From Methylocystis echinoides (lineage in GTDB: Bacteria; Pseudomonadota; Alphaproteobacteria; Rhizobiales; Beijerinckiaceae): DNA of 64,000 bases. Of this stretch, positions 28,199-30,836 are shown piece after piece. Position 1 is the stretch's first letter, and the number at the start of each line of letters is the position of its first letter. The notes under the pieces are model-generated. The model ran no database searches. It had not been told where the DNA came from and saw only the letters and a list, made by a program, of their open reading frames with translations. The DNA is taken from contig NZ_CP156084.1 in the NCBI RefSeq assembly GCF_040687965.1, positions 1,502,501-1,566,500 of the forward strand. Reading direction: 5' to 3'. Position numbers and translations under genes: made by a program.

Positions 28199-28317
28199 GG
28201 AGGGGGTAAAAAATAGCCGAGTTCGAGCCATTGCCCCGCTGGGACAAAAGCGCCCGCTTGCATTCCTCTCCATTCCATATTCTTTGAGCCGAGGCGGTGC
28301 AAACGAGAGAGTGCCGA

Positions 28318-30801
28318 ATGAGCGTTTTTGTTCTGAATTTGACCCCTGCCGAGGTCGTGAAACTCTTGCGGACCGAAATACAAGCGGCCTGGGGCGCGCC
28401 CGAACTCAACATTGGCGGGCAAAAGGAATATCTCATCCAGGAAGAGTTCGACGCCGCCGCCTATGGCGTTACGGACAAGACGAACGTCGACCTCGTGACG
28501 TCGACCGCAACCTTAACCATAGAGCCGCGCGTCGAAAGCGGTTACTGGGTGCTCGAAACCATTGTCGAACGCGACCTCGGCGCCGTCCGGAAGCGCGAGG
28601 AATATGGGATGGTCCCTTCCGAGCTCTCGCTCGACGCCTTCGAGGCGGAGCTCGAGGCCTCGGACGTCAAGCGCACGAGCGTGCGGCTTTTGACGCAGAC
28701 CCCTGAAGGGAAAGACGCTTTCGACCGCTGGCTCGTGGCGGCGCAGGCGAAGCGCGGCCACATCGAAAGGGAGACCAAGGAGAAGAAAATGAAAACCGAC
28801 ACAAGGAACCTTCTGGCCACCACGGCGCTCATCTGGCTCGTGGGCGCCGGCGCCTATTACCTCGGCAATTCCCAGCAGAGCGAGAAAGCGTCCCCGGCGC
28901 ATGAAACCGCGAGCGTCTCAGAGCCTCACGCGCCCGCGTCGCAGAACGCGTCAGCCGGGTCCGCGCCCGCAGCCGAACCTGTCGCCTCCGCCGCCCCTGC
29001 GCCGCAGACGGCTGCGCCGGCCGCGCCCGCCGCTCCGGCTGACTCTTCCGACGAGCTTCTCGCTTTGCAGAAGGACCCCAAGCAGTGGGTGTCGCCGACG
29101 GGCGACTACGCCAACGTCCGCCACTCGGCGTTGAAGCAGATCACCGCCGACAATGTGGCGAAGCTGCAGCTCGCCTGGCAGTTTTCGACGGGCGTTCTGC
29201 GCGGCCACGAGGGCGCGCCGCTGGTCGTGGGCGACGTGATGTATCTGCATACGCCGTTCCCCAACATCGTTTATGCGCTCGATTTGAAGGATCCCGACCA
29301 CAAGATCCTCTGGAAATATGAGCCCAAGCAGGATCCGTCGGTCGTGCCGGTGATGTGCTGCGACACGGTTAACCGCGGCCTCGCCTATGGCGACGGCAAG
29401 ATCTTCCTCGCCCAGGCCGACACGACGCTCGTCGCGCTCGACGCCAAGACCGGCAAGCTCGTCTGGTCGGTGAAGAACGGCGATCCGTCCAAGGGCCAGA
29501 CCTCGACCGCCGCTCCGCATGTGTTCAAGGACAAGGTCTTCGTCGGCATCGCCGGCGGCGAGTTCGGCGTGCGCGGCCATATCACCGCCTATTCGGTGAA
29601 GGACGGCAAGCAGGCGTGGCGCGGCTACTCCATGGGCCCGGACGCCGACACGCTGATCGACCCCGACAAGACCACCCATCTCGGCAAGGTCGTGGGCAAG
29701 GATTCGGGCATTTCGACCTGGCAGGGCGACCAGTGGCAGACGGGCGGCGGCACCACCTGGGGCTGGTATTCCTACGATCCTGAGCTGAACCTCGTTTATT
29801 ACGGCTCGGGCAACCCCTCGACGTGGAACCCGGTGCAGCGCCCGGGCGACAATCGCTGGTCGATGACGATCTGGGCGCGCGACCTCGACACCGGCAAGGT
29901 GAAGTGGCTCTACCAGATGACGCCCCACGACGAGTGGGACTATGACGGCATCAACGAGATGGTGCTGGCCGACCAGCCGATCGGCGGCAAGACGGTCAAG
30001 ACGCTGGTTCACTTCGACCGCAACGGCTTCGGCTATACGCTCGACCGCACCAACGGCGATCTGCTGGTCGCCGAGAAATACGATCCGGCGGTGAACTGGG
30101 CGACGAAGGTCGACATGGATAAGGCGTCGCCGACCTATGGGCGTCCGCTGGTCGTCGACAAATATTCGACGCAGCACAATGGCGAAGACACCAACACGCA
30201 GAACGTCTGCCCGGCGGCGTTGGGGTCGAAGGACCAGCAGCCGGCGTCCTACGACGCGGCGACGGGTCTGTTCCTGGTGCCGACGAACCACGTCTGCATG
30301 GACTATGAGCCGTTCCGCGTGAGCTATACGGCGGGTCAGCCTTACGTCGGCGCGACGCTGGAGATGTTCCCGGCGGGGCGGGTTCTCGGCGACGGGACGA
30401 ACCACACCGGCAATTTCATCGCCTGGGACGCGAAGGTCGGCAAGATCGTGTGGTCGAACAAGGAGCAGTTCTCGGTTTGGGGCGGGGCGACGTCGACGGA
30501 CGGCGGCGTGACCTTCTACGGGACGCTCGAAGGCTATCTGAAGGCGGTCGACACCAAGACCGGCAAGGAGCTCTACAAGTACAAGACGCCGTCGGGCATC
30601 ATCGGCAACGTCATCACCTATGAGGCGGGCGGCAAGCAGTATGTGGCGGTGCTGTCGGGCGTCGGCGGCTGGGCGGGCATCGGCCTGGCGGCCGGTCTCT
30701 CCAAGTCCAACGAGGGCCTCGGCGCGGTCGGCAATTACGCCTCGCTCGCCAATTACACCGCGCTCGGCGGCGTGCTCAGCGTGTTTGCGCTGCCGGAGTA
30801 A
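28318..30801 (+). CDS. XoxF-like lanthanide-type PQQ methanol dehydrogenase with an extra N-terminal domain and membrane anchor
   Basis: Periplasmic PQQ alcohol dehydrogenases oxidise methanol and pass electrons to a cytochrome c. From ATG 28318 the product is 827 residues, about 200 longer than usual. Residues 1-157 form an unrecognised charged domain. Residues about 164-183 form one hydrophobic helix with no clear cleavage site, followed by an Ala/Pro-rich linker to about 235. The rest is a full eight-bladed PQQ domain beginning [12 protein letters not shown]. It has the vicinal disulfide CC (347-348), GGEFGVRG and the DYD triplet (541-543) that marks lanthanide-using XoxF enzymes. MxaF enzymes carry Ala at the third position. 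No xoxG or xoxJ is adjacent. The enzyme class is firm; the topology is inference. Confidence 0.9.
28777..28791 (+). promoter_or_regulatory. Internal ribosome site and ATG inside the xoxF-like gene
   Basis: AAGGAG (28777-28782) lies six bases before an in-frame ATG at 28789. Starting here gives a 670-residue protein that opens with MKTDTRN and the membrane helix, much like an ordinary XoxF with an export signal. The same frame may thus yield a long and a short product, or the upstream segment may be a separate gene that has lost its stop codon. Confidence 0.6.
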
Positions 30802-30811
30802 ACAAGAAGAA

Positions 30812-30836
30812 GGGCGCTCGGTTCGACCGAGCGCCC
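30812..30836 (+). terminator. Hairpin after the xoxF-like gene
   Basis: A perfect 10-bp stem (GGGCGCTCGG with CCGAGCGCCC, loop TTCGA) begins 11 bases after the stop. There is no T tract, so it may act as an mRNA 3' stabiliser or a weak terminator. Confidence 0.65.

What the first reader, a model, noticed from the sequence alone, without database searches (positions are those of the whole stretch)
28318..30801. XoxF-like methanol dehydrogenase with an unknown N-terminal domain, a membrane anchor and an Ala/Pro linker
Ordinary XoxF enzymes are about 600 residues with a cleaved signal peptide. Here one uninterrupted frame encodes a 157-residue unrecognised domain, a single hydrophobic helix without a clear cleavage site, a roughly 50-residue Ala/Pro linker and then a complete XoxF with DYD and the CC disulfide. 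If translated as read, it would be a membrane-tethered lanthanide dehydrogenase with a cytoplasmic domain, possibly linking periplasmic methanol oxidation to a cytoplasmic partner or signal. The enzyme part is seen; topology and purpose are inferred.
Basis: partly seen in the sequence, partly recalled or inferred. Interest (0 to 1): 0.75.

Follow-up and report, generated by a model that had tools for sequence, protein, structure and literature searches.

The report
Membrane-anchored XoxF with extra N-domain
In some Methylocystis methane-eating bacteria, one of several near-identical copies of the rare-earth methanol-oxidising enzyme XoxF is fused, in a single gene, to a probable membrane anchor and an unstudied extra domain, apparently giving the same enzyme a different address in the cell.

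Summary
In detail: one frame (28318-30801, 827 aa) encodes a 157-residue domain, one hydrophobic helix, an Ala/Pro linker and a complete XoxF (XoxF5-like). The fusion is no artefact: it occurs in 7 of 39 genomes held for this genus (Methylocystis); three have the whole frame, four run off contigs at or inside the XoxF repeat. The N-domain is under purifying selection.

Two results change the picture. First, the anchor also occurs without the N-domain (5 genomes), starting at the homologue of this gene's M158, which here has a good ribosome site; a second, shorter anchored product is likely. Second, catalytic parts of XoxF5 copies within a genome are nearly identical (4-fold divergence 0-0.04; 0.19-0.34 between a fusion and other genomes' copies), while their N-termini differ: gene conversion seems to keep one enzyme with several addresses. 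No xoxG-like gene lies directly behind the anchored copies examined (0 of 6).

The N-domain belongs to an undescribed family; stand-alone members often sit in stress islands (Lon, Hsp20, CBS, DUF2267). Its model is confident (pLDDT 92) with no PDB match found. Membrane topology, non-cleavage and the domain's role are inferred.

The parts
28305..28311 (+). GAGAGAG, ribosome-binding-like site of the long (fusion) form
   Evidence: GAGAG before the same ATG in 7 of 7 fusion genomes
28318..28788 (+). N-terminal domain, residues 1-157, of an undescribed family; alpha/beta model with mean pLDDT 91.8
   Evidence: Homologues; model; no Pfam family; no Foldseek PDB match at E <= 0.001
28777..28782 (+). 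AAGGAG, 6 bases before the internal ATG
   Evidence: G355's N-domain-less anchored XoxF also has AAGGAG before its start
28789..28791 (+). Internal ATG (M158), homologous to the start of N-domain-less anchored XoxF genes
   Evidence: 81-nt anchor segment 73-79% identical to four such genes, 40-46% to the G031 and G355 fusions
28810..28866 (+). Single hydrophobic helix L165-G183, putative uncleaved signal anchor
   Evidence: 19-residue uncharged run, hydropathy 1.52; topology inferred
28867..29049 (+). Ala/Pro-rich linker, residues 184-244
   Evidence: Translation; length and sequence vary between species
29050..30801 (+). Complete XoxF5-like lanthanide methanol dehydrogenase domain and stop codon
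   Evidence: 98% identical to two other copies in the genome
30812..30836 (.). 11-pair GC-rich hairpin just after the stop codon

Best explanation
This is a membrane-tethered isoform of the cell's ordinary XoxF5. The protein inserts as a signal-anchored, N-in/C-out protein: the N-domain stays in the cytoplasm, one helix spans the inner (or intracytoplasmic) membrane, and a flexible Ala/Pro tether holds an active lanthanide/PQQ methanol dehydrogenase in the periplasm close to that membrane. Gene conversion with the soluble copies keeps the catalytic part nearly identical, so the tethered copy needs no cytochrome gene of its own and can use the same PQQ, lanthanide and XoxG supply; only the targeting part differs. 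The N-domain is a cytoplasmic docking or regulatory module recruited from a family often found in stress islands. In this species the gene probably also gives a shorter anchored XoxF from M158. Shown: the fusion, its conservation, selection on the N-domain, the homogenised catalytic parts, anchor-like copies without the N-domain, no xoxG-like frame next door. Inferred: topology, non-cleavage, localisation, activity, gene conversion as the cause, dual start, role of the N-domain.
For: Fusion in 7 of 39 genus genomes, whole frame in G000, G031, G355 and in protein P0015 of 849 aa. G355 and G025 have no ATG/GTG/TTG at residues 136-190. N-domain dN/dS 0.04-0.25. Same upstream neighbours in G000, G355 and G025. 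Catalytic parts: 14 within-genome pairs in 5 genomes with 4-fold divergence 0-0.041, against 0.185-0.343 for each of the three fusions with copies of other genomes; the tree groups copies by genome and rejects a clade of the three fusions, p-AU 6.6e-9; low within-genome values also in G002, G030, G009 (0.003, 0.025, 0.034). Anchor without N-domain in G355, G025, G010, G009, G022. No xoxG-like frame behind 3 of 3 fusions and 3 of 3 N-domain-less anchored copies examined, against one behind 8 of 8 plain signal-peptide copies. Positive residues precede the helix. The fusion persists in a 2.1 Mb, 98% complete genome (G008; its contig ends inside XoxF).
Against: Neither hydropathy (anchors 1.43-2.24, sister signal peptides 1.37 and 1.73) nor the uncharged run (18-20 against 16 and 18) separates anchor from cleavable signal (8 anchored and 2 signal sequences), and GAGA before YY could be read by signal peptidase. 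The fusion was not found in 32 of 39 genus genomes (some incomplete), so it is accessory. One homologue (P0003, on a 513 kb contig) reads out of frame in the linker. 3 of 6 signal-peptide copies with a linker also lack a neighbouring xoxG, so that trait is not peculiar to anchored copies. Where positional orthology is not shown (all but G000/G355), recent duplication instead of conversion is not excluded. I had no expression or proteomic data.
Confidence: 0.55

Rival explanations
1. The hydrophobic helix is a cleaved internal signal: XoxF is released as a soluble enzyme and the N-domain stays behind as a small membrane protein.
For: Small residues GAGA before YY could allow cleavage; hydropathy and run length overlap with those of the sister signal peptides.
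Against: A folded N-in part of about 160 residues is unusual for a cleaved signal (general knowledge); the hydrophobic run goes on through aromatic residues (YYLG and the like) in the anchored copies listed; sister copies already supply soluble XoxF.
Confidence: 0.2
2. Transmembrane sensor: XoxF senses lanthanide or methanol outside and the N-domain reports it inside.
For: [quoted passage not shown] The N-domain shares a 407-codon frame with a CBS pair in G895, and stand-alone members lie in stress islands.
Against: A linker of about 60 to 95 residues cannot easily pass on a conformational change; the anchor occurs without the N-domain in 5 genomes; the catalytic part is kept like the ordinary enzyme rather than specialised; no known output domain; the CBS protein that adjoins a stand-alone member in G355 was not found in G000 or in 5 of the 6 other fusion genomes.
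Confidence: 0.13
3. In this species only the M158 start matters, and the N-domain frame is a separately evolving leader that is rarely joined to XoxF.
For: AAGGAG at good spacing before M158; M158 is the homologue of the start of N-domain-less anchored XoxF genes; P0003 has the parts out of frame.
Against: No stop between the parts in 7 of 7 genomes, as far as the contigs go; conserved upstream ribosome site; no ATG/GTG/TTG at residues 136-190 in G355 and G025.
Confidence: 0.08
4. The copy is a by-product of repeated recombination with no special use.
For: Accessory distribution, found in 7 of 39.
Against: Intact frame over N-domain divergence down to 50% identity, purifying selection, retention in a reduced genome (G008).
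Confidence: 0.04

Closest known systems
XoxF5-type lanthanide methanol dehydrogenase (6oc5, 6dam)
   Same: Whole catalytic domain, Cys pair, DYD (DFD in 6oc5)
   Different: The usual enzyme has a cleaved signal peptide and often a neighbouring xoxG (recalled); here an N-domain, a putative anchor, a linker and no neighbouring xoxG-like frame
Sister XoxF5 copies of the same genome (C1:600679 and C1:1356016)
   Same: Catalytic part 98.7% and 97.6% identical at nucleotide level
   Different: Signal peptide with or without an Ala/Pro linker; both have a xoxG-like gene behind them
N-domain-less anchored XoxF5 (G355 C2:485281, G010 C6:1703513, G009, G022, G025)
   Same: Same kind of anchor and Ala/Pro linker; start homologous to M158
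   Different: No N-domain
Membrane-bound PQQ glucose/quinate dehydrogenase family (TIGR03074)
   Same: Membrane-bound PQQ propeller enzyme, in analogy only
   Different: 157 bits against a cut-off of 833

Membership tests
XoxF-type lanthanide methanol dehydrogenase | Full-length match to the PQQ methanol/ethanol dehydrogenase family | tested here: met
   TIGR03075 740.8 bits, cut-off 480; 6oc5 E 1.8e-295
XoxF-type lanthanide methanol dehydrogenase | Second Asp of the lanthanide site (DYD) with Glu and Asn ligands and the adjacent Cys pair | tested here: met
   WDYDG, GGEFG, Asn of YYGSGN and CC aligned to 4mae and 6dam; which residues are ligands is recalled
XoxF-type lanthanide methanol dehydrogenase | Cleaved Sec signal peptide, soluble in the periplasm | tested here: inconclusive
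   Helix lies after a 157-residue domain; hydropathy and run length do not decide
XoxF-type lanthanide methanol dehydrogenase | xoxG next to xoxF (usual context, not a defining trait of the enzyme) | tested here: not met
   No CxxCH frame in 1.5 kb downstream here nor in G355 and G031; xoxJ not tested
XoxF-type lanthanide methanol dehydrogenase | Lanthanide-dependent methanol oxidation | not testable with these tools
   Needs the purified enzyme
XoxF5 clade | Grouping with XoxF5 in a tree of all XoxF clades | not tested
   Only a better match to 6oc5 and 6dam than to 4mae (979 and 925 against 655 bits); clade labels recalled
CYTH / triphosphate tunnel metalloenzymes (N-domain) | Shared tunnel fold | tested here: inconclusive
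CYTH / triphosphate tunnel metalloenzymes (N-domain) | N-terminal ExExK motif (recalled) | tested here: not met
   The first strand reads SVFV and holds no ExExK

The most novel reading that the evidence does not exclude
A membrane-spanning methanol dehydrogenase whose cytoplasmic domain, from a stress-island family, senses or reports the cell's state (energy or protein damage) and sets where, or for how long, a periplasmic lanthanide enzyme works at the methane-oxidising membrane: a direct inside-to-outside control of lanthanide methanol oxidation, run on a catalytic core that gene conversion keeps nearly identical to the housekeeping enzyme.
Probability: 0.2. Interest if true: 0.85.

Novelty: new variant of a known kind. 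Interest (0 to 1): 0.6.

Why it matters
Several methanotrophs carry multiple xoxF5 copies (PMC12482762, passages) of unclear purpose. Here the copies of a genome differ hardly at all in the enzyme and almost wholly in the N-terminus (plain signal; signal plus linker; anchor; N-domain plus anchor), which turns the question of why there are several copies into a testable one about location. If the tether is real, methanol oxidation can be fixed at the membrane, where recruitment of methanol dehydrogenase by pMMO arrays has been suggested (PMC9445010, passage). It also warns that XoxF trees made from the catalytic part group copies by genome and hide older differences, and that draft assemblies break inside this repeat and list the N-domain as a 'partial' hypothetical protein (P0002 and P0008).

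Tried and rejected

Limits: searches scored at most 10 candidates per genome, so genomes without a match may be false negatives (one search missed G025, whose anchored copy one search had found). admits only proteins of 0.55-1.75 times the query length, so long fusions could not appear there. In one search seven loci gave no parse (L088, L090, L092, L100, L115, L128, L129), two were read in a wrong frame (L084, L050) and two cut at a wrong place (L044, L113); these four were read instead. So the counts of N-terminal kinds are lower bounds. In one search, 18 of the 21 distinct copies were used; three more divergent ones (L045, L046, L051) were dropped, and between-genome figures were printed only for pairs with a fusion; close species can be nearer (G030 against G002: 0.051; G021 and G023 are neighbours in the tree). 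G009 failed and was redone from the MCCD motif onward. One search used 6 of 7 fusion genomes; 9 of its 15 pairs were saturated (pN/pS 0.35-0.42).

Full report
What is there. The frame 28318-30801 (+) is open and encodes 827 aa. Residues 245-827 are a complete lanthanide methanol dehydrogenase: TIGR03075 at 740.8 bits, PDB 6oc5 at 1.8e-295. In the alignments the Cys pair and GGEFG are shared with 6oc5, 6dam and 4mae, WDYDG with 6dam and 4mae (WDFDG in 6oc5), and the Asn of YYGSGN with all three; the roles of these residues as metal ligands are recalled. Residues 1-157 match no Pfam family. Between them lie a 19-residue uncharged run (165-183) and a 61-residue Ala/Pro-rich linker.

The organism. 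The genome is 4.35 Mb in 4 contigs. Its genus group also holds G023, one of whose contigs has 260,028 bases, the length of the contig of P0038, named Methylocystis hirsuta; four fusion contigs of the group carry record titles such as Methylocystaceae bacterium. I take the window to be from a Methylocystis species; the species was not identified.

The fusion is conserved. The N-domain was found in 7 of 61 genomes of relatives, the window's own included, and in 10 of 397 family genomes. Seven genomes, all in the window's genus (39 held), carry it fused to XoxF: G000, G031 and G355 as whole frames (837, 828, 846 codons stop to stop), and G025, G027, G020 and G008 running off contig ends, G027 and G008 inside XoxF, G025 and G020 at its first residues. 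The other three genomes (G023, G218, G182) have stand-alone members only. One more whole protein of 849 aa, P0015, comes from the protein search. G000, G355 and G025 share the upstream neighbours (alpha/beta hydrolase and SDR, 79% identical), and G000 and G355 also CstA and methionine synthase downstream; G031 and the G008/G020/G027 group have other neighbours.

Start sites. GAGAG precedes the upstream ATG in 7 of 7. G355 and G025 have no ATG, GTG or TTG at residues 136-190, so in these two the anchor cannot be made from a start just before it. In G000, M158 has AAGGAG at 6 bases; G031 has an ATG at residue 151 with GGGAGGG before it. The N-domain evolves under constraint: dN/dS 0.04-0.25 in the six pairs with unsaturated dS. 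It is a fast part of its neighbourhood: 69% aa identity between G000 and G355, against 95% for CstA, 94% for MetH and 97% for XoxF.

Anchors without the N-domain. G355 (C2:485281), G025 (C88), G010, G009 (GTG start) and G022 carry the same kind of anchor and an Ala/Pro linker with no N-domain in front. The G000 anchor segment is 73-79% identical in nucleotides to four of these and only 46% and 40% to the anchors of the G355 and G031 fusions, and the likeness to G355's reaches the AAGGAG. I infer that a conversion tract from an N-domain-less anchored copy, ribosome site included, replaced the original anchor of the G000 fusion, leaving a gene that can probably start at two places. Anchored copies with or without N-domain thus occur in at least 10 of 39 genus genomes; a family scan for the anchor region at E <= 1e-20 matched this genus only (11 of 397 genomes, not all of these matches reaching the anchor itself).

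One enzyme, several addresses. Copies of XoxF5 within a genome differ at 0-4.1% of 4-fold sites (14 pairs in 5 genomes), while each of the three fusions differs from copies of other genomes at 18.5-34.3%; G002, G030 and G009 also show low within-genome values (0.3%, 2.5%, 3.4%). The tree groups the copies by genome, with 100/100 support for G000, G355, G031 and G218, and rejects one clade of the three fusions (lnL 621 lower, p-AU 6.6e-9), although the G000 and G355 fusions are orthologous by position. Gene conversion is the simple reading; recent duplication is not excluded for copies without positional orthology. The N-termini are of four kinds: plain signal peptide; signal peptide plus a QxWxLxPEE-like peptide and linker; anchor plus linker; N-domain plus anchor plus linker. 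A cytochrome (xoxG-like, CxxCH) frame lies directly downstream of 8 of 8 plain copies, 3 of 6 of the second kind, 0 of 3 of the third and 0 of 3 of the fourth, among the copies with 1.5-2.2 kb of downstream sequence examined.

How it most likely works. A signal-anchored N-in/C-out protein: positive residues before the helix, a long folded domain on the N side, a PQQ enzyme that must be periplasmic on the C side. Neither hydropathy nor run length tells the helix from the sister signal peptides; on checking this I lowered anchoring from 0.6 to 0.55 and raised cleavage from 0.15 to 0.2. The tether would hold an ordinary XoxF at the membrane; the N-domain would dock or regulate it from the cytoplasm. 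A sensor passing a conformational change through about 60 flexible residues is less likely, though XoxF has been proposed to signal to MxcQ (PMC11845868, passages).

What is in print. Searches for XoxF with membrane-anchored, multiple copies, sensor, transmembrane/fusion protein, gene conversion, MxcQ, proteome/membrane fraction and intracytoplasmic membrane, and for methanol dehydrogenase with signal anchor (two searches listed 12 of 20 and 12 of 15 papers) listed no paper whose title or abstract start describes such a fusion; no held paper has both xoxF and gene conversion. The lanthanome survey reports three xoxF5 copies in each of 7 Methylocystis genomes and a patchy tree, and its main text holds none of the words fusion, transmembrane, signal peptide or N-terminal (PMC12482762, passages). 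PMC13322032 and PMC11102522 use 'membrane-anchored' for other proteins (passages). Only open-licence papers were searchable.

Noticed in passing
L002 (G000 C1:600679), L033, L049, L087, L089, L091: Second kind of XoxF5 N-terminus: after the signal peptide a conserved peptide of the form QxWxLxPEE/D..KY, then an Ala/Pro linker; possibly a docking peptide.
   Followed up: partly
window 30812-30836; L002 and L003 just after the xoxF stop: 11-pair GC-rich hairpin right after the stop codon; similar inverted repeats seen by eye behind the two sister copies, before xoxG.
   Followed up: no
L138/L139 (G895 C1:3891436-3892464): N-domain and a CBS-domain pair in one 407-codon frame, in another family of the class.
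   Followed up: partly
L070-L072, L074-L076, L078: Stress-type islands with Lon, Hsp20, topoisomerase VI, AdoMet synthetase, RNA 3' cyclase and radical SAM genes around stand-alone N-domain genes, in Methylocystis and other members of the order.
   Followed up: partly
P0003: Homologue whose protein reads out of frame from the linker on, on a 513 kb contig: lost fusion or sequencing error.
   Followed up: no
L051 (G218 C2), L045 (G024), L046 (G007): More divergent XoxF copies (80-81% identical to the window's) with an insert before the [11 protein letters not shown] stretch, not homogenised with the others.
   Followed up: no
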